Below, piece by piece: positions 1,327 to 50,269 of a stretch of 64,000 nt of DNA (position 1 is its first letter; the number at the start of each line of letters is the position of its first letter). The notes under the pieces were generated by a model, which saw nothing but the letters and a program-made list of their open reading frames with translations, did no database searches and was not told where the DNA came from. The translations under genes and the position numbers were made by a program. This DNA comes from Clostridium sp. BJN0013 (GTDB lineage: Bacteria > Bacillota > Clostridia > Clostridiales > Clostridiaceae): assembly GCF_040939125.1 (NCBI RefSeq), contig NZ_CP162495.1, positions 248,001 through 312,000 on the forward strand. Direction: 5' to 3'.

Positions 1327-3951
1327 TCACAGAATTTCTACATATCCTTCTTTTCCATTTATCCTTATTTTCTGTCCGTCTTTAATCAATTTTGTAGCAT
1401 TCTCCACGCTTACCACTGCAGGTAAGCCATATTCTCTTGCAACGACAGCCCCGTGGGTCATCATCCCCCCTACTTCGGTAACCAAGCCCTTAATCGATAC
1501 AAATAGCGGAGTCCAACTAGGATCAGTAAATGTTGTGACCAAAATATCTCCTTTCTCTATATTGGCATCCTCCATTTTTAAAACAACTCTTGCACGTCCT
1601 TCCACAACACCTGAGGAAACAGGTACTCCTGCTAATGCTCCATGAGGTATGCTGCTGGTATCATATTCACCAGATATAATCTCTCCTTCAGATGTTATCA
1701 CACGAGGAGGTGTAAGCTTTTCAAAGATTTCATATTCTTCTTTCCTCTTAATTATAATACTGTAATCCAGCCTATTTGTTTTAACAACATTCCTAAGTTC
1801 ATCAAAAGTCAGGTAATATATATCCTCTTTATGACCTATTATACCTTTATAAACTAAAATATCAGCTTCTTTCATTAACGCCTGTTTGATAATCCAATCA
1901 AACCATATGAGGATATATTTATTGAATTCACGGTAACCAGCATAGTTACGTAAAACACTGATTGCTTTTTTGGCCTTCTTGGCTTTTCTTTTTCCACCAG
2001 GCAATTTCTCAAGGCTACTTAGGATTTCCTGCTCCTTCTGCTTTGCGTCCTTCAGTCCCTGTTCAAACTTAATACTGTGTGCATTTGGTCCAAAAGCTTT
2101 GATATTACTTAGAATAGCAGGAACAAGTATGGTTGACCTTTCATTCCATCTCGTTCTTGTTATATCAATTTCCGCAGAACAACGCATACCATATTTCTTA
2201 AGATATGCTTTAATTGAATTAGTAACAGCCAAGCCACCTTCTAGTTTGCTTAAATCTTTAAAAAAAGTAGCTTCTTTCGGCTGCTGGAAATATTCAATCA
2301 CTTCTGGATATTGCCTGACAACATCCGCTACATCCAAAAGCTCAAGTCCCATTTCAGATGTAACATTATTAGATACAGATTGAGCAAGGATATCAGCTGC
2401 ATTTTTTTTACCCAGCCATTTTTGAATATTCTTGTTTATCCAATAAGAGGCATAGGCTCCCGCAAAAACCACTCCATAGCTATCAAAAATAGTATCCATT
2501 ATTTGCTTCATACTCTTTAGAATAAAATCAAACAGTTTATCTCCCGAAACTTTAGCAATACTTTGCTCCATTTCCAGCATCAGAGCCTTATTATTATTCA
2601 TTAGTCTTTCCACTATAGCTGGATCGTTTGCCCTATAGTCTTTTATGGTAAGGTTTAACCATTTCAGCCACATTGATTTTGGAGGCATGACTGTCTTTCC
2701 CTTATACAGAGTTTTCATAAAATTCTTTCTTTTCGTCAGATTAATAATAGCACTCTTCATTAGAACATCCACCGTATCAAGACCTTTTATAAATGTCATC
2801 CTGCCAAAGGGTGAAGAAATCTCACGAGATACATCTATATAAAGTCTTCCACCCATCTCACTCATGACGCCGCTGATCATCTGTTTGAATAAAGTCTGGA
2901 AAAGAGACATTCCCAGTGGCCTCATGGCTTCGGTCATCATCTGCCGGTGTCCAAATGAGATATATACATGATTCTTCCCATCCTTAGTTTCCGGAGGTAT
3001 AGGATATAATGTAGTGATAGGGCGACTTTGAACAATATAGAATTTATCTTCATAAAAGCACCATTCTATATCTTGTGGACATCCAAAATACGCCTCAATC
3101 TTTCTACCCATACTCTCTAGTTGCAAAATCTGATCATCCGGAAGTGTTTGCTTATTCTGCTGTGTAGCTTCAATCTCTTGCTCCTTTGTGCCGCCTGTCT
3201 CTAGTGCATATATGGCCGATTTCTTGGTGGATATCTTTTTATCTAGTATACTGCCTTGCCGCACTTTATAGATATCTGGATTTACTAGACCGGATACGAG
3301 AGCCTCCCCGAGCCCAAAGCTTGCATCAATGGATACAACCTTTCTGTTGGAGGTAACAGGATCTGCAGTAAACATTATTCCTGAAGCCTGTGGAAAAACC
3401 ATCTTCTGTATTACTACAGATAGATAAACTTTGCGGTGGTCAAAATCATTTTGTATACGATAAATTACTGCTCTGTCTGTGTAAAGTGATGCCCAGCACT
3501 TTTTGATATACTTCAGTATGTTATCTTTTCCCATAATATTCAGATAGGTATCCTGCTGACCTGCAAAGGAAGCCAGGGGCAAATCCTCTGCTGTGGCACT
3601 TGAGCGCACGGCATAGGCATTTTTTTCCCCAAGCTTTAAAATATATTGTGATACCTCTTTTGCAATATCCTTTGAAATGTCCATACTTTCTATAACCCCG
3701 CGAATTTTTTTGCTGAGCTGGCCGATTTTTCCCCTGTCATCTACCTTTAAAAGGGATAATTTATCAATTAATACATTAAATTCGGGATTGTTGTCAACAA
3801 TTCTTTTATATGCTTCAGTAGTTATGCAAAAACCATCTGGAACGGCTATTCCCTTAATTTTGGACAATTCTCCAAGATTGGCACCTTTGCCTCCTACTAC
3901 CGGAAGTTTTGATTTATCAATTTCTTGAAAACCTAACACATATGAACTCAT
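1327..3951 (-). CDS. rph: Rifampin phosphotransferase-like (PEP synthase-related) enzyme
   Basis: The 874-residue protein has the PPDK/PEP-synthase architecture. An N-terminal ATP-grasp domain (~1-320) carries VGGKGANLGELSKI, AVRSSATAEDLP, SFAGQQDTYLN and DIEWCF. A central domain (~330-755) follows. A C-terminal swivelling domain has the phospho-histidine loop GGMMTHGAVVAREYG, with His near residue 833. The N-terminus and the central and C-terminal sequences match my memory of Listeria rifampin phosphotransferase closely, more so than PEP synthase. That family moves the beta-phosphate of ATP onto the ansa-bridge hydroxyl of rifamycins. GGAGG lies just before the ATG at 3951. An IS110 element begins 13 bases upstream and separates the gene from its apparent native promoter. 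The resistance function is inferred, not shown. Confidence 0.82.
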   Translation of the reverse strand: MSSYVLGFQEIDKSKLPVVGGKGANLGELSKIKGIAVPDGFCITTEAYKRIVDNNPEFNVLIDKLSLLKVDDRGKIGQLSKKIRGVIESMDISKDIAKEVSQYILKLGEKNAYAVRSSATAEDLPLASFAGQQDTYLNIMGKDNILKYIKKCWASLYTDRAVIYRIQNDFDHRKVYLSVVIQKMVFPQASGIMFTADPVTSNRKVVSIDASFGLGEALVSGLVNPDIYKVRQGSILDKKISTKKSAIYALETGGTKEQEIEATQQNKQTLPDDQILQLESMGRKIEAYFGCPQDIEWCFYEDKFYIVQSRPITTLYPIPPETKDGKNHVYISFGHRQMMTEAMRPLGMSLFQTLFKQMISGVMSEMGGRLYIDVSREISSPFGRMTFIKGLDTVDVLMKSAIINLTKRKNFMKTLYKGKTVMPPKSMWLKWLNLTIKDYRANDPAIVERLMNNNKALMLEMEQSIAKVSGDKLFDFILKSMKQIMDTIFDSYGVVFAGAYASYWINKNIQKWLGKKNAADILAQSVSNNVTSEMGLELLDVADVVRQYPEVIEYFQQPKEATFFKDLSKLEGGLAVTNSIKAYLKKYGMRCSAEIDITRTRWNERSTILVPAILSNIKAFGPNAHSIKFEQGLKDAKQKEQEILSSLEKLPGGKRKAKKAKKAISVLRNYAGYREFNKYILIWFDWIIKQALMKEADILVYKGIIGHKEDIYYLTFDELRNVVKTNRLDYSIIIKRKEEYEIFEKLTPPRVITSEGEIISGEYDTSSIPHGALAGVPVSSGVVEGRARVVLKMEDANIEKGDILVTTFTDPSWTPLFVSIKGLVTEVGGMMTHGAVVAREYGLPAVVSVENATKLIKDGQKIRINGKEGYVEIL

Positions 3952-3978
3952 ATATATTCCTCCTCGTATAATATAGTT

Positions 3979-4240
3979 GTACCAATCAATAGAGATTAGA
4001 TCATCTCTACTAACGGATATTTATAAATATAAATTAATTATTGTTCGTACATCTCAAGTTCCGTTCTGGAAATTGCAATATCCTTTAGTAAGTCTAAAAA
4101 TAATAAGAGTGTATCTTCCACAAGGGTAACTTGATTAATAGTTAAATCATTGTATAATATCTTCTGAATAGAGGTTAGATGTTTAGCTGGTTGAGTTTCT
4201 TCCCTTGCGGAAGAATTACTCGTGTCACAAACGAGGTTGT
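3979..4240 (+). ncRNA. Candidate bridge RNA leader of IS110 copy 1
   Basis: The non-coding leader holds several clear hairpins: AGAGAT/ATCTCT (3991-3996 with 4003-4008), TTCTTCC/GGAAGAA (4197-4203 with 4209-4215) and CTCGT/ACGAG (4219-4223 with 4231-4235). It also repeats both element ends: GTATAATAT at 4152-4160 equals the left end at 3966-3974, and TAGCTGGT at 4184-4191 equals the right end at 5769-5776. Known IS110 bridge RNAs carry donor-pairing guides of this sort. The start is set about seven bases after the TATAAT at 3967-3972; the 3' end is a guess. I could not assign the target-binding loop. Confidence 0.6.
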
Positions 4241-4306
4241 TAGCTCACTGTTAGGTATGGATACTCTGTTCTATCTTCAAAAATATATGAAAAGGAGATA
4301 TTTACA

Positions 4307-5605
4307 ATGTCAAAATTTTTTAATTTACCTGTAGTAGGTATCGATGTTTCTGCTGATTATTCTATGGTTGCAATACTAGCCCCTGATGGAGCAGTTTATA
4401 GAAAGGCTTTCAAGATAATGCACACTTCTGATGGTTTCTCTTATCTTCTCAAAGAAATGAGAAAAGTGGAAAAAGAGTTCTCCATGAAACCATCACTTTT
4501 CATGGAATCAACTGGTGTTTACCATTTAACTCTTTTCCACTTCCTAAAGAATAACGAATTAGAAACTTTCGTTATAAATCCTCTTATTACTAATAGTAAC
4601 AAAAATTTAGGAATAAGAAAAGTGAAAAATGATAAAATGGATGCCTTAACTATTGCAAACATAGCAAAATTTCAAAATATAAAAATGTCTGATTATTTAG
4701 ATATCCCAATATTTGCTGTAAGATCACTTTGTCGTGATTACTACAGCCTTATAGATAACCGTTCCCAGTTCAAGAAAAAGTTATCTTCTGATCTTAGAAC
4801 GTTTTTTCCTGGATATCATAATGTTTTTTCTGACGTAGCTGGTGTTACTTCATTAGCAGTTTTAAGTAAATTTTCATCCCCTAAAGCAATTGTTGATGCA
4901 CCAAAAGATGATTTAATTGCTTTACTAAAGGAAAATTCTTGTAAATCAATTGACTGGTGTACAAACACATATAACAAACTTTTAAACGCTGCACTAAGTG
5001 CTGTACAAATAGGAATAACCAATAATTCCTTTAAAGTAACTATAGGCATAAATATAAAGCTTTTAAACATCATTAATGAACAAATTGAAACTCTAGTAAA
5101 TGAAATAGAATCAGCAGTTAAAAATGACTCAACACCTGCTTCATTTAAGAACAACATAGCATTGCTTCTTTCTTTCAAAGGTATAGGCTTTATTACAGCT
5201 GTAACCATAATGAGTGAAATAGGCGATCCTACAAGGTTCAAGCATCCAAAAGAAATGGTTGCTTTCTTTGGAATTGACCCTTCAGTTAGTCAATCCGGGA
5301 AATTTAATAGTGACCAAAATAAAATGTCCAAGCGTGGTACACGCTTTGGTAGAAGAGCACTTTATGCTGCTGCTCTTGCATCAATAAGAAAATCCAAAAC
5401 TGGTAAACCAATTAACAGTGTTCTTTACCAGTATCGCAATAAAAACTTAAATGGTAAGAAGAAGAAAGTTGCTCTTTGTGCAATTATGCACAAACTTGTA
5501 AAGTACATATTTGCAGTTCTTAGAGATCAAAAGCCTTATGAAATTCGTGAACCAAAACTGCACAACCAAATGTATGTTACTAATTTTTCAAGATCAGTTT
5601 CTTAA
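4307..5605 (+). CDS. IS110-family DEDD transposase/recombinase
   Basis: This 432-residue recombinase has the two-domain IS110 plan. The N-terminal RuvC-like DEDD domain (~8-165) shows VVGIDVSADYS, then LFMESTGVYHLTL, then VINPLITN and VKNDKMDALTIANIA, which supply the acidic residues. The C-terminal Tnp_IS116/IS110/IS902 domain (~285-375) shows LLSFKGIGFITAVTIMSEIG, FFGIDPSVSQSG and KRGTRFGRRALYAAA, with the nucleophilic-serine region of the family. AAAAGGAGA lies at the right distance before the ATG. The second copy at 48549 encodes the same protein, so both copies look intact and recently moved. Confidence 0.93.
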   Translation: MSKFFNLPVVGIDVSADYSMVAILAPDGAVYRKAFKIMHTSDGFSYLLKEMRKVEKEFSMKPSLFMESTGVYHLTLFHFLKNNELETFVINPLITNSNKNLGIRKVKNDKMDALTIANIAKFQNIKMSDYLDIPIFAVRSLCRDYYSLIDNRSQFKKKLSSDLRTFFPGYHNVFSDVAGVTSLAVLSKFSSPKAIVDAPKDDLIALLKENSCKSIDWCTNTYNKLLNAALSAVQIGITNNSFKVTIGINIKLLNIINEQIETLVNEIESAVKNDSTPASFKNNIALLLSFKGIGFITAVTIMSEIGDPTRFKHPKEMVAFFGIDPSVSQSGKFNSDQNKMSKRGTRFGRRALYAAALASIRKSKTGKPINSVLYQYRNKNLNGKKKKVALCAIMHKLVKYIFAVLRDQKPYEIREPKLHNQMYVTNFSRSVS

Positions 5606-5767
5606 CCACTTAGACAAATTAATTATGGTCCAAATTGGATAAATTATTTCCAATTTAGTTTTAGTAAAAATTTGCCATAGTTCGTATTTTTTTATGGTTT
5701 GTTTGCCATGCTCTTTTTTGCTCTTAAATTTAGTAAATAAATTTTTTAAATTAACTATTGACTTTTA

Positions 5768-6376
5768 CTAGCTGGTCTTATAAAAATTGTTTTTAAGTAA
5801 ATCCATGCATTCCTCAAATTCTTTTAAAAAGCCTTCATAATCAATCTCTGTCTTACTTGATAATTGATTCATATACCCATCAGTAAGCCAGAGAAGCATT
5901 TTCATAACCAGCTTTGGATCAATACCTTCTTTAAATTTTGAACAGTCCATACCATCAAAAGCAATTTTGTTTCTGAAACCCTCTCCTTTCGCTAAAATGC
6001 TTCTTATGTCTTCTTTTACTTTCTCATCATTTTCAAAATACATACTTGTTAAAAAGGCCGGAATTGCATTATGTTTTCTCATAATCGCAATTTCAATATT
6101 AGATGAAAGTTTAATTCTTTCAAAGAAATCAGTAATGGTATAATCAAATTTTTCATTAACTTCCTTCGTAATAATATTGCCGCATAGCTCAATTAAATAA
6201 AGATATAAGGCTTTCTTTGTACCGAAGTAATGAAATACCATTGCTTTTGAAATTCCCGCAGCAGCAGCAATGTCGCTTACGGAGGTTTTCTTATAACCAT
6301 TGGCAGCAAAAGATTTAAGTGCAGCATCTATAATTGTCTTTTGTTTCTTTACAGGCAAATTAAAAAATTTTTCCAT
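5768..6376 (-). CDS. TetR-family repressor, C-terminus altered by IS110
   Basis: The 202-residue protein has a TetR N-terminal helix-turn-helix (~10-57: IIDAALKSFAANGYKKTSVSDIA, then AGISKAMVFHYFGTKKALYLYL; shown in two parts) and a helical ligand domain. A GTG at 6385 is possible, but GGGGTGA sits five bases before the ATG at 6376. The last two codons and the stop lie inside the IS right end. Removing the IS restores an ending in Lys-Glu-Glu-Tyr-Ile with a TGA that overlaps the rph ATG as ATGA. So this was probably the first gene of a tetR-rph operon. Two operator-like palindromes flank its promoter, which suggests autorepression. Confidence 0.87.
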   Translation of the reverse strand: MEKFFNLPVKKQKTIIDAALKSFAANGYKKTSVSDIAAAAGISKAMVFHYFGTKKALYLYLIELCGNIITKEVNEKFDYTITDFFERIKLSSNIEIAIMRKHNAIPAFLTSMYFENDEKVKEDIRSILAKGEGFRNKIAFDGMDCSKFKEGIDPKLVMKMLLWLTDGYMNQLSSKTEIDYEGFLKEFEECMDLLKNNFYKTS

Positions 6377-28159: not shown

Positions 28160-28345
28160 TCTGAAAAAACCGTTAAATCAGTAAGTAGCATATAAATAGA
28201 TGCTGATATACCGTGAATTAAACGGGATTTTAAGCCCTTGGAGTATCAGACCAAACGAGGTAGCAGCATGTGTGCGAAATCGGATACTATGAATGGGGAA
28301 GTAAACAGGGTTTTTATGAAAATTTAAAAATTAGATTGTTTACGT
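28160..28345 (+). ncRNA. Small group I intron-like RNA in the cphA leader
   Basis: The pairing order fits a group I intron core. P2: 28187-28191 with 28200-28204 (AGCAT/ATGCT). P3: TACC-GT at 28209-28214 with AC-GA-GGTA at 28255-28262. P4/P5: GGG 28224-28226 with CCC 28235-28237 around ATTTTAAG. P7: AGTATC 28242-28247 with GATACT 28283-28288. P8: GCA/TGC at 28266-28275. P9-like: GTAAAC 28301-28306 with GTTTAC 28338-28343. CCGTT at 28170-28174 can pair with AACGG at 28346-28350 as P10, placing the 3' splice site after G28344. The 5' splice site is unclear. It has no endonuclease gene. Confidence 0.6.
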
Positions 28346-46192: not shown

Positions 46193-48193
46193 TTATAAAA
46201 TAAATTTATTTACTATATTGTTCAATTCATCATAGATATTTTTAAGTTCCTGCATATTTTCATTTATAGCTTCTATGGAATTATTCTGTTCTTCCACTGA
46301 AGCGGCCAATTGCTGACTTCCAGCAGAAGATTCTTGTGAAATGTCAGATATATTTTTTATAGCTTGTATAACAGAATTTTTATTTGATTCTACTTGATTA
46401 ATTTTTTCAGTCAATATATCTATATTTGGTAGCATATCATTTATAGAATTTTCAATCATTAAAAATAATTTATTGGATTGTTCCATACTTTCATTAGCTT
46501 CAGCATTAATTTTATTAGAATTAATAACATTTTTTTGCGTTATTTCGATTTCGTTCTGTATTTCTCTTATTACCTTTGAAATCTTATCTATGGCCTGTTT
46601 AGTCTGTTCTGAGAGAGCCCTTATCTGATCTGCCACTACAGAAAATCCTTTTCCAACTTCTCCGGCTTTGGCAGCTTCAATAGCAGCATTTAATGCCAGA
46701 AGATTAGTTTGTTCTGATACAGATGTTATAGTGATTACTATTTCACCTATAGATTGGGATTTTTGTATTAAATTACTCATGCTTTTTGAGACTTGGTTAG
46801 ATGCTTTGTTGTTGTTTTTTAATTTTAAGTTTAAAAGTTTTATTGTCTGTATTCCACGAGTACTAATATCTTTTATATTATAAAAGTATTTTTTAACTTG
46901 CTCAACAGCATTTGACACATCCTTAATTTCATAGGATAAATTATTTAATTTATTTACTCCATCGTTAGCGGTATTTACCTGAATAATTGAACCCTTTGCC
47001 ATTTTTTCTGTAGTCTTGGAAACTTCATCTATTGATTTGGAAGTTTCATTTAATGAAGTAGCTACACTGGATGAATGAGTTAATATATTGTTAGAACTAT
47101 TTTTGATATCTTTAATTACAGTAATTAAAATATTTGATAATGAATTTATATCTGCTGCTATTATACCTAGTTCATCCTTATTTTTAATTACAGTATTTAA
47201 TTTACTCTTGTCATATTTAAAATTTAATTTTTCTATTTCAGATATAACATATCTTATGTTTTTTATAGGTTTAGATATAATATTTGAAATATATCTAGAA
47301 ACTATAATAGCAGCGATTATACAGACAATGAAAATAATTGAATTTAAAATTATAAGTGAATTTAATTCTTTAGTAAATTCACTTTTAGGTACTGCAAATC
47401 CTACAGTCCAGTTGGATATTTTGATATTAGAAGATAAAAAATATTTATTTACACCGTCGTAGTCTTTTAAAGATAATAAGTTATTACTTTTATTTGCAAT
47501 TTGAATGTATTTTCCACCATTGAAAGTATCTAAATTTTTGAGTGTTTCACCTGAGGGTTTAAGTTCTTTATATGGATGAACAAGTACGTTGTTTTCTTCG
47601 TTTAATAAATAGCCATAACTATTTTTAACAGGAGTTGCTTTTTCTATTAAATTTATAATAACATCCATTCGTAAATCTTCTGCCATTACCCCTATAAGTT
47701 GACCATCTTCTTCTATAGGTATTGTTATAGATACAACTATTTTTTTAGTATACATATCAAAATATGGAATATATGATATTTTATTTTGTTCTATTGTTTT
47801 TTTATACCAAGATCTTTTTGTACTATCATAGTTTGCTGGAGGTATCCAGCCTGCTCCATCTAAGATACCTTTATTTGGAAGCCCCATGTATAAGTCAGAT
47901 ATGTTAGAATTTGATTTAAGCTTTTCTTTAAAATAGGCAAGTGATTTAGTATTATCACCTACAATATTGTTATCATACATAGTCTGTACAATTTGTTTAA
48001 ATAGAGCAGTTTCTTTATCTAACCAGCTGTTTACTATATTTGAATAGTTCTCTGATGATATGTTCATTTTGTCACTATATTGCTCTATAATAATATTTCT
48101 AGATACTAAATAGCTGCCTATAGATGAACAAAGTAGTAATAATATAGTTAGTGATAAAGTTAAAAAGGTCATTTTACTTTTAATACTTTTCAT
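46193..48193 (-). CDS. Methyl-accepting chemotaxis protein with Cache sensor
   Basis: The 666-residue receptor has a membrane helix (~7-29), an extracellular double-Cache-like domain (~35-270: [48 protein letters not shown]), a second helix (~280-300), a HAMP region, and a long coiled-coil signalling domain with the hairpin tip [21 protein letters not shown] (short part: [18 protein letters not shown]). Cache domains bind small metabolites; the ligand is unknown. GGAGG is nine bases before the ATG. An IS110 copy begins just upstream and cuts the gene off from its original promoter, so it may be silent. Confidence 0.92.
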
Positions 48194-48220
48194 AATGATT
48201 CCTCCTCGTATAATATAGTT

Positions 48221-48482
48221 GTACCAATCAATAGAGATTAGATCATCTCTACTAACGGATATTTATAAATATAAATTAATTATTGTTCGTACATCTCAAG
48301 TTCCGTTCTGGAAATTGCAATATCCTTTAGTAAGTCTAAAAATAATAAGAGTGTATCTTCCACAAGGGTAACTTGATTAATAGTTAAATCATTGTATAAT
48401 ATCTTCTGAATAGAGGTTAGATGTTTAGCTGGTTGAGTTTCTTCCCTTGCGGAAGAATTACTCGTGTCACAAACGAGGTTGT
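48221..48482 (+). ncRNA. Candidate bridge RNA leader of IS110 copy 2
   Basis: This is the same structured leader as in copy 1, with the end-matching segments at 48394-48402 (GTATAATAT) and 48426-48433 (TAGCTGGT). Identity of the leader in both copies fits both having the same target. Confidence 0.58.
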
Positions 48483-48548
48483 TAGCTCACTGTTAGGTAT
48501 GGATACTCTGTTCTATCTTCAAAAATATATGAAAAGGAGATATTTACA

Positions 48549-49847
48549 ATGTCAAAATTTTTTAATTTACCTGTAGTAGGTATCGATGTTTCTGCTGATT
48601 ATTCTATGGTTGCAATACTAGCCCCTGATGGAGCAGTTTATAGAAAGGCTTTCAAGATAATGCACACTTCTGATGGTTTCTCTTATCTTCTCAAAGAAAT
48701 GAGAAAAGTGGAAAAAGAGTTCTCCATGAAACCATCACTTTTCATGGAATCAACTGGTGTTTACCATTTAACTCTTTTCCACTTCCTAAAGAATAACGAA
48801 TTAGAAACTTTCGTTATAAATCCTCTTATTACTAATAGTAACAAAAATTTAGGAATAAGAAAAGTGAAAAATGATAAAATGGATGCCTTAACTATTGCAA
48901 ACATAGCAAAATTTCAAAATATAAAAATGTCTGATTATTTAGATATCCCAATATTTGCTGTAAGATCACTTTGTCGTGATTACTACAGCCTTATAGATAA
49001 CCGTTCCCAGTTCAAGAAAAAGTTATCTTCTGATCTTAGAACGTTTTTTCCTGGATATCATAATGTTTTTTCTGACGTAGCTGGTGTTACTTCATTAGCA
49101 GTTTTAAGTAAATTTTCATCCCCTAAAGCAATTGTTGATGCACCAAAAGATGATTTAATTGCTTTACTAAAGGAAAATTCTTGTAAATCAATTGACTGGT
49201 GTACAAACACATATAACAAACTTTTAAACGCTGCACTAAGTGCTGTACAAATAGGAATAACCAATAATTCCTTTAAAGTAACTATAGGCATAAATATAAA
49301 GCTTTTAAACATCATTAATGAACAAATTGAAACTCTAGTAAATGAAATAGAATCAGCAGTTAAAAATGACTCAACACCTGCTTCATTTAAGAACAACATA
49401 GCATTGCTTCTTTCTTTCAAAGGTATAGGCTTTATTACAGCTGTAACCATAATGAGTGAAATAGGCGATCCTACAAGGTTCAAGCATCCAAAAGAAATGG
49501 TTGCTTTCTTTGGAATTGACCCTTCAGTTAGTCAATCCGGGAAATTTAATAGTGACCAAAATAAAATGTCCAAGCGTGGTACACGCTTTGGTAGAAGAGC
49601 ACTTTATGCTGCTGCTCTTGCATCAATAAGAAAATCCAAAACTGGTAAACCAATTAACAGTGTTCTTTACCAGTATCGCAATAAAAACTTAAATGGTAAG
49701 AAGAAGAAAGTTGCTCTTTGTGCAATTATGCACAAACTTGTAAAGTACATATTTGCAGTTCTTAGAGATCAAAAGCCTTATGAAATTCGTGAACCAAAAC
49801 TGCACAACCAAATGTATGTTACTAATTTTTCAAGATCAGTTTCTTAA
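48549..49847 (+). CDS. IS110-family DEDD transposase/recombinase
   Basis: This 432-residue protein is identical to the one at 4307-5605, with the same DEDD and Tnp_IS110 motifs (GIDVSADYS, FMESTGVYH, KGIGFITAVTIMSEIG, FGIDPSVSQSGK). Its leader, SD and start are the same too. The lack of any difference points to recent duplication. Confidence 0.93.
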   Translation: MSKFFNLPVVGIDVSADYSMVAILAPDGAVYRKAFKIMHTSDGFSYLLKEMRKVEKEFSMKPSLFMESTGVYHLTLFHFLKNNELETFVINPLITNSNKNLGIRKVKNDKMDALTIANIAKFQNIKMSDYLDIPIFAVRSLCRDYYSLIDNRSQFKKKLSSDLRTFFPGYHNVFSDVAGVTSLAVLSKFSSPKAIVDAPKDDLIALLKENSCKSIDWCTNTYNKLLNAALSAVQIGITNNSFKVTIGINIKLLNIINEQIETLVNEIESAVKNDSTPASFKNNIALLLSFKGIGFITAVTIMSEIGDPTRFKHPKEMVAFFGIDPSVSQSGKFNSDQNKMSKRGTRFGRRALYAAALASIRKSKTGKPINSVLYQYRNKNLNGKKKKVALCAIMHKLVKYIFAVLRDQKPYEIREPKLHNQMYVTNFSRSVS

Positions 49848-50269
49848 CCACTTAGACAAATTAATTATGGTCCAAATTGGATAAATTATTTCCAATTTAG
49901 TTTTAGTAAAAATTTGCCATAGTTCGTATTTTTTTATGGTTTGTTTGCCATGCTCTTTTTTGCTCTTAAATTTAGTAAATAAATTTTTTAAATTAACTAT
50001 TGACTTTTACTAGCTGGTCTTTTTGCTATAATAAAAAATAAAGTATTTTAAAAGTACTTTTATATGAGATTAACTTTAATATTGTTTATATATCGGCGAT
50101 TATTTTAATAATTTGATATATTTTTTTATAAAATATATCAAGTTGGTAGGTATTTTTTCAATCTATAGCTTTTTAAGAAGATTAATGTTTAAATATGCAC
50201 TTTTATATATGCTAGGACTTTGTTAAAATATATTTAATAATTTAAAAGCTTTTAAAAGGTGGGATATTA

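What the first reader, a model, noticed from the sequence alone, without database searches (positions are those of the whole stretch)
3956..5779. IS110-family element whose insertion target is a Shine-Dalgarno sequence
Both copies of the element sit at the same 10-bp site, ATTCCTCCTT, split after the core CT. On the opposite strand this reads AAGGAGGAAT, and in both cases it is the ribosome-binding site of a gene (rph at 3951, the chemotaxis receptor at 48193). IS110 elements are known to choose targets through a bridge RNA. A target loop programmed to the SD sequence would give thousands of safe landing sites, and the insertion leaves the SD on the gene side intact. Two sites are a small sample, but chance agreement over 10 bp with the same function is unlikely.
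Basis: partly seen in the sequence, partly recalled or inferred. Interest (0 to 1): 0.85.

Follow-up and report, generated by a model that had tools for sequence, protein, structure and literature searches.

The report
Transposon aimed at ribosome-binding sites
A bacterial jumping gene carries a small guide RNA whose aiming segment is complementary to the signal that tells ribosomes where to start, so most of its copies, and those of many relatives, sit just in front of genes.

Summary
Confirmed and extended. The window holds two copies of an IS110-family element (3965-5778 and 48207-50020), each at ATTCCTCCT|T, the complement of a Shine-Dalgarno (SD) sequence; the genome holds 12. A sister species has the empty site of one window copy, its flanks sharing exactly the 2-bp CT core. 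Ten of 12 copies sit at an SD, one in a coding gene, one intergenic. The likely cause is visible: the ten 1890-bp copies encode a canonical IS110 bridge RNA whose left target guide is TATTCCTCCT. Both window copies (1814 bp) have lost this target-binding loop (76 bp), so they probably moved with bridge RNA made elsewhere. Over 43 distinct left guides (103 sites) guide and target co-vary (0 of 100,000 permutations). Anti-SD guides recur in relatives from several families of the phylum; a few relatives are re-aimed at repeats or hairpin-like sites and sit there. Only 22% of guide-matching sites are SDs, so loss of coding insertions probably sharpens the pattern. Four of ten intact copies match the guide fully only if one target base is looped out. 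Nine searches of open-licence papers showed nothing like it. Targeting is inferred from sequence, not tested at the bench.

The parts
3965..5778 (+). IS110-family element, copy 1 (1814 bp; lacks the target-binding loop)
   Evidence: edges from 12 genomic copies
3956..3964 (+). Left half of the split target, ATTCCTCCT, core CT at 3963-3964; the right half starts with T at 5779. Other strand: AGGAGGAAT = SD of the gene 1327-3951
3967..3972 (+). TATAAT at the left end; in the circular form it would lie 17 nt after TTGACT (5758-5763) of the right end, a junction promoter
   Evidence: sequence; junction promoters described for IS110 in PMC11208160
4131..4158 (+). TTGATT-16-TATAAT, candidate internal promoter just before the bridge RNA; the TATAAT is conserved in most relatives of the alignment
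   Evidence: consensus match only; 7 promoter-like sites found where shuffles give 9.8
4175..4181 (+). TTAGATG scar of the 76-bp deletion that removed the target-binding loop (left guide TATTCCTCCT, hairpin, right guide GAAAAAG), present in the ten other copies
4182..4236 (+). Donor-binding loop: left donor guide TTTAGCTGGT (matches right end TAGCTGGT), right donor guide ACGAG (pairs with CTCGT at the junction)
   Evidence: matches read by eye
4307..5605 (+). IS110 recombinase, 432 aa (DEDD_Tnp_IS110 + Transposase_20)
1327..3951 (-). Gene whose SD carries copy 1 (PPDK_N + PEP-utilisers, 874 aa)
48207..50020 (+). IS110-family element, copy 2 (same 76-bp deletion)
48198..48206 (+). Left half of the split target ATTCCTCCT; right half starts with T at 50021; SD of the chemotaxis receptor gene
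   Evidence: empty site in G004
48549..49847 (+). IS110 recombinase of copy 2
46193..48193 (-). Methyl-accepting chemotaxis receptor gene whose SD carries copy 2

Best explanation
This is an IS110-group element that works by the bridge-RNA mechanism described for IS621, with a target-binding loop that encodes an anti-Shine-Dalgarno sequence. The left target guide (TATTCCTCCT) pairs with the SD-bearing strand, and the right target guide (GAAAAAG) pairs with the first bases beyond the CT core. The recombinase joins the circular element at CT, so its left end faces the gene. Shown by sequence: the edges, the CT core, the empty site, the guides, their co-variation with targets, and the SD positions. 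Inferred: that the RNA is made and loaded, that pairing drives target choice, that coding insertions are weeded out by selection, and that the loop-less window copies were moved by bridge RNA supplied in trans from intact copies.
For: Twelve full copies in the genome; all 12 left flanks end in CT. 10 of 12 lie at an SD. Guide in the ten 1890-bp copies. Bridge-RNA scaffold in 18 aligned RNAs, with the guides as variable islands and changes on both sides at 10 of 30 predicted pairs, 5 in the target-loop hairpin and 5 in the donor-loop stem. Guide-target co-variation: 19 elements/47 sites, left guide 5.65 of 8 matched against 3.95 permuted, 0 of 20,000; first base beyond the core as predicted in 43 of 46 sites, 0 of 20,000; 43 left guides/103 sites, 0 of 100,000. 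SD sites 62 of 84 when the guide ends in six pyrimidines, 6 of 21 otherwise, P = 2e-4 (split chosen after seeing the data). Empty sites in G004, which has no copy at E <= 1e-60. In named plasmids of Peptoclostridium and Thermoanaerobacterium an annotated start codon lies right behind the SD.
Against: No experiment. 2 of 12 own copies are not at SDs. With CCTCC-type guides, 20 of 73 sites are not at SDs after moving L004 by hand (19 of 73 by script); these include 2 of 8 copies in G147 and all three in G106/G107. Relatives with other guides still reach SDs in 15 of 32 sites; several of those guides (CCCCC, ACCTC, CTCCT) can also pair with SDs. The split by CCTCC alone gives only P = 0.013. The bases 5' of CCTCC match their own targets only modestly (1,149 of 100,000 permutations reach the observed value). 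Single-sequence folding of the RNA is only slightly more stable than shuffles (z = -1.3).
Confidence: 0.92

Rival explanations
1. The guide recognises just a C/T-rich word; the SD position is a by-product of selection, because insertions in coding sequence are lost and SDs are the commonest non-coding place with this word.
For: Guide-matching sites (>=8 of 10, then T) in a 464-kb sample: 148 coding, 49 SD, 23 intergenic; among non-coding sites SDs are 68%, against 10 of 11 non-coding copies observed, P = 0.09. One copy does sit in an RraA-like coding frame.
Against: It explains where copies survive but not why 22 of 43 distinct left guides contain CCTCC, nor why guides vary around this tract across families. 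It complements the main reading more than it competes with it.
Confidence: 0.35
2. Recognition of translation starts by something other than the guide, such as the ribosome, 16S rRNA or the mRNA.
For: The gap from AGGAGG to ATG is tight (7 nt in 21 of 46 ATG sites with CCTCC guides; gaps of 4-12 nt were searched).
Against: Targets follow the guide when it is not SD-like: TTTTTACCT, CAGCCCCT, CGCCCCT, TATATTC. Two own copies have a bulged full guide match at non-SD places (L004, L008).
Confidence: 0.03
3. The two window copies did not transpose in the loop-less form: an intact copy inserted at each site and both later lost the loop, by the same slip between TTAGATG repeats or by gene conversion.
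For: The deletion is exactly between 7-bp direct repeats, so recurrence is possible.
Against: Both copies share the identical deletion and lie 44 kb apart; 0 of the other 10 copies have it. Bridge RNA is known to act in trans (PMC11208160, passage seen).
Confidence: 0.35

Closest known systems
IS621 and IS110-group elements with bridge RNA (PMC11208160)
   Same: DEDD + Transposase_20 recombinase, long 5' non-coding end, CT core, target- and donor-binding loops, guides that include the core, junction promoter
   Different: IS621 targets REP elements; here the guide is complementary to the Shine-Dalgarno sequence, so targets are translation-initiation sites. Apparent tolerance of a looped-out target base is not in the passages seen (word 'bulge' 0 times in the main text).
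ISEc21 and IS110/IS1111 seekRNA elements (PMC11187229)
   Same: RNA from the non-coding region selects the target; natural re-aiming between relatives
   Different: Targets named in what I saw are REPs, attC sites and short linear sites; the passages and section 13 seen mention no SD or start-codon target.
IS elements targeting REP sequences (PMC1525189; search listings only)
   Same: Repetitive, mostly non-coding targets
   Different: REPs are lineage-specific repeats; the SD is set by the ribosome and shared across bacteria (general knowledge).

Membership tests
IS110 family (IS110 group) | DEDD RuvC-like domain PF01548 and Transposase_20 PF02371 with conserved serine | tested here: met
   (E 5e-28 and 5e-24); alignment to the ISCro4 chain with GIDVS, MEST, NDKMD and KMSKRG blocks, (which residues are catalytic is recalled)
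IS110 family (IS110 group) | Long non-coding region upstream of the transposase (IS1111: downstream, with subterminal inverted repeats) | tested here: met
   418 nt upstream in intact copies (342 in the window copies) against 173 nt downstream; inverted repeats not searched at this scale
IS110 family (IS110 group) | Dinucleotide core shared by both ends and the target; no duplication beyond it | tested here: met
   G004 empty site: the two flanks overlap by 2 bp, CT
IS110 bridge-RNA system | Target-binding loop whose two guides co-vary with the target | tested here: met
   absent in the two window copies
IS110 bridge-RNA system | Donor-binding loop matching the RE-LE junction | tested here: met
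   TTAGCTGGT and ACGAG against TAGCTGGT-CT-CGTATAA, by eye
IS110 bridge-RNA system | Promoter reconstituted across the circular junction | tested here: inconclusive
   TTGACT-17-TATAAT by sequence, same layout in relatives; activity not testable here
IS110 family (IS110 group) | Circular intermediate, scarless excision, RNA bound by recombinase | not testable with these tools
   -

The most novel reading that the evidence does not exclude
A bridge-RNA clade spread over several families of its phylum keeps an anti-Shine-Dalgarno guide, using the ribosome's own start signal as a landing pad that hosts cannot easily change. Pairing tolerates a looped-out target base, which widens the usable SD variants. 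Separately evolved IS110 families have arrived at translation starts too: in the same genome a 28%-identical family with 14 copies sits in TATTATG, in 9 of 14 at the ATG of an open frame.
Probability: 0.6. Interest if true: 0.88.

Novelty: new variant of a known kind. Interest (0 to 1): 0.82.

Why it matters
Known IS110 targets that I saw described are accidental repeats such as REPs or attC sites. An anti-SD guide would be an RNA-guided mobile element that uses a near-universal functional signal, explaining how one element finds many usable places in an SD-using host and why it lies head-to-head with the gene it precedes. It supplies 43 natural left guides with about 100 sites for working out bridge-RNA pairing rules (register, bulges, right-guide length), a candidate recombinase that inserts upstream of genes without cutting the coding frame, and naturally loop-less copies that could test trans-action.

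Tried and rejected
Phages at E <= 1e-60 and viral contigs (close relatives only): no match. One genome-contig scan gave one relative, L024, with the same flanks as G062's copy. The order search repeated the family result. Outward promoter that could re-drive the downstream gene: none in the left end 3965-4306; of 7 promoter-like sites (9.8 expected from shuffles) four point that way but lie inside the transposase gene. The second IS110 family, first taken as a negative control for SD sites, turned out to lie at start codons, so it is no control. One search's count (35 of 45 copies at SD positions; L066 dropped for a short flank) was too generous: L004 has an 83-codon frame but lies in an RraA-like coding gene, and was moved by hand. 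Rows dropped before the counts: 11 copies without a recognisable left end, of which three (as L157, L145, L154) came back, 8 RNAs without a recognisable left end and sites with under 60 bases of flank. L153, L159 and L208 may have mis-called left ends and are counted as non-SD. In one search the two window copies were left out because they carry no guide; they were given the guide of their sister copies. The pyrimidine-tract split was chosen after seeing the data. The masks of the two copies are about 8 bp off; one search uses wider masks.

Full report
WHAT IS THERE. The window carries two practically identical 1814-bp elements at 3965-5778 and 48207-50020. Each encodes a 432-aa protein with the IS110 domains DEDD_Tnp_IS110 and Transposase_20; the only solved relatives found at E <= 0.001 are ISCro4 and IS621 recombinases. 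Both are split from their flanks at ATTCCTCCT|T. On the other strand this is AGGAGG followed 7 nt later by the ATG of a PPDK_N/PEP-utilisers gene and of a chemotaxis receptor gene.

COPIES IN THE GENOME. A DNA search of the window's genome (4.10 Mb, one contig) found 12 full copies and a relic. All 12 left flanks end in CT, all elements start CGTATAATATAG and end ACTAGCTGGTCT, and all right flanks start with T. Ten of 12 lie at an SD before an open frame: the PPDK_N/PEP-utilisers gene, the chemotaxis receptor, and genes with weak phage-capsid, 4Fe-4S, QueT, ETF-alpha, MethyltransfD12, FapA and metallo-beta-lactamase-fold domains, plus a 65-codon frame without a Pfam match. L008 is intergenic (no open frame behind it). 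L004 lies inside a frame open for 191 codons up to the boundary, with an RraA-like domain.

EMPTY SITES. The window's second copy, with its flanks, was searched in G004, a sister species that has no copy at E <= 1e-60. The left flank matched up to its last base and the right flank from the element's terminal CT, with 2 bp overlap, the CT core. The empty site reads CATAATCAGTCCTCCTTTTTGCTATAATA. At the ETF locus (L009) G004 reads GATAAATTAAAGGGGGAAATAATTAAATG where ours is split. The other ten sites were not looked for in sister species.

THE GUIDE. The ten copies outside the window are 76 bp longer (1890 bp). The extra stretch lies between TTAGATG repeats in the upstream non-coding region and begins TATTCCTCCTGGGAGG. 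Relatives with 38-67% identical recombinases were found in 22 further genomes among 206 of the family (23 of 206 with our own), and in a class sample 6 of 391 genomes matched at a stricter limit, four of them already known. Their non-coding regions align to one scaffold: TAGATG, a variable 10-mer, GGG-hairpin-CCC, a variable stretch, GTATC, then TTTAGCTGGTTGGG...ACCCGTGTCACAAACAAGG, with variants. The consensus fold puts the two variable stretches on the two sides of an internal loop, and 10 of 30 predicted pairs (5 in the target-loop hairpin, 5 in the donor-loop stem) show changes on both sides in at least one of 18 sequences. This is the target-binding loop described for bridge RNAs, in which the left guide pairs with the bottom strand and the right guide with the top strand, both including the core (PMC11208160, passages). 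The second loop matches the element's own ends, as a donor-binding loop should.

CO-VARIATION. For 19 elements (47 sites) the left guide matches its own targets at 5.65 of 8 non-core positions against 3.95 after permutation, and 0 of 20,000 permutations reach it. The first base beyond the core agrees with the right guide in 43 of 46 sites. With more relatives, 43 left guides and 103 sites, scored at the better of two registers, give 0 of 100,000. Telling cases: guide TTTTTACCT at TTTTTACCT, TATATTC at TATATTC, CAGCCCCT at CAGCCCCT, AAACCTCCT at AACCTCCT (G015, 4 of 5 sites), TCACCTCT at TCACCTCT, and the relic's ATCTCTCCT at ATCTCTCCT. Among guides containing CCTCC, the bases 5' of that tract match own targets only modestly (1,149 of 100,000 permutations reach the observed value).

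HOW WIDESPREAD. A covariance model of the RNA matched 34 of 200 genomes of the family and 13 of 398 genomes drawn from the phylum, own genome included in both. Of 105 distinct sites, 73 belong to CCTCC guides. The script puts 54 of these at an SD; L004, moved by hand, leaves 53. Other guides: 15 of 32. Outside our genome: 43 of 61 with CCTCC guides and 15 of 32 with others. With guides ending in six pyrimidines, 62 of 84 are at an SD, against 6 of 21 otherwise (a split chosen after seeing the data). The gap from AGGAGG to ATG, searched from 4 to 12 nt, is 4-10 nt with mode 7. 22 of 43 distinct left guides contain CCTCC. Against the pattern: 2 of 8 copies in G147 and all three in G106/G107 carry CCTCC guides but are not at SDs. 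In the named plasmid records of Peptoclostridium acidaminophilum and Thermoanaerobacterium, an annotated start codon (TTG and ATG) lies right behind the SD.

SELECTION. In 464 kb of this genome, sites matching the guide at 8 or more of 10 positions and followed by T number 220: 148 coding, 49 SD, 23 intergenic. Observing 10 of 12 at SDs has P = 1.3e-5 under random use of such sites. Among non-coding sites alone, 10 of 11 against 68% is not significant, P = 0.09. So the sequence guide plus loss of coding insertions is enough; no separate recognition of translation starts is needed. Gene calls in this background are simple longest-frame calls of my own.

BULGED PAIRING. Of the ten intact copies, L004, L006 and L008 match the guide at only 6, 5 and 4 of 10 positions without gaps, but at 10 of 10 if one target base is looped out; L009 goes from 8 to 10 in the same way. 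In the background, 4 of 13,413 CT|T sites with ungapped scores of 4-6 have this property. Tolerance of a bulge is the simplest reading; it was noticed in the data, not predicted.

THE WINDOW COPIES. Both lack the target-binding loop. The same deletion in two copies 44 kb apart, and in 0 of the other 10, suggests that a loop-less copy moved with bridge RNA supplied by an intact one. Identical independent losses or gene conversion remain possible.

CONSEQUENCE FOR THE HOST. The AGGAGG stays with the gene, but everything upstream is replaced by the element. Its left end shows no outward promoter candidate, and terminator-like hairpins facing the gene were found at 4235-4219 and 4507-4480 (3 such sites on both strands, 0.7 expected, consensus matches only). 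The likely effect is loss of expression until the element leaves, unless transcription reads through; this is inference.

A SECOND FAMILY. Fourteen copies of a 28%-identical IS110 element in the same genome all lie at CATAATA, TATTATG on the other strand. In 9 of 14 a frame of at least 59 codons starts at that ATG (no null was computed). G003 and G004 hold the empty site TTATTCATAATATCATCCACC, consistent with a TA core. Its guide was not worked out.

LITERATURE. In nine searches no listed title or abstract start pointed to SD or start-codon targeting by IS110 elements. The library holds open-licence PubMed Central papers only, so this is weak evidence of absence. Four papers were seen in passages: PMC11208160, PMC11187229 (its section 13 whole), PMC3196728 and PMC7288454.

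VERDICT. Mechanism class: known (IS110 bridge RNA). Target class: apparently new (the ribosome-binding site), and common in the clade.

Noticed in passing
L038-L051 (own genome, 14 copies, 1669 bp): A second, 28%-identical IS110 family sits in CATAATA = TATTATG (9 of 14 with a frame of at least 59 codons from that ATG), often with SD-like complement in the right flank; empty sites in G003 and G004 fit a TA core.
   Followed up: partly
L023:1334-1645 (own genome): A relic of a related element, with no transposase match, keeps left end, bridge-RNA piece and SD site; its guide ATCTCTCCT equals its own target.
   Followed up: yes
L168, L178, L184 (G898), L173 (G689), L166 (G627), L175 (G717): Relatives with other guides, such as CGCCCCT or GCTCCCCT, several of them next to hairpin-like palindromes that may be terminators (seen by eye): re-aimed members of the same RNA family.
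   Followed up: partly
L164, L177, L183, L186 (G679): The left guide ATCACCTCCT has the same letters as the 3' tail of 16S rRNA (tail recalled, not from a call).
   Followed up: no
L064, L065, L079 (G106, G107): Three copies lie in the same repeated sequence context rather than at SDs, as if inserted in another repeat.
   Followed up: no
G071 loci (L200, L201, L203): G071 has 11 RNA matches, many at contig ends; possibly many copies that break the assembly.
   Followed up: no
L039:2946-3147: A stretch of about 200 bp with many copies in at least 9 of 13 genomes of the genus (79-96% identity; capped list).
   Followed up: no
window 28235-28300: RAGATH-18 RNA (Rfam RF03064, 52.9 bits).
   Followed up: no
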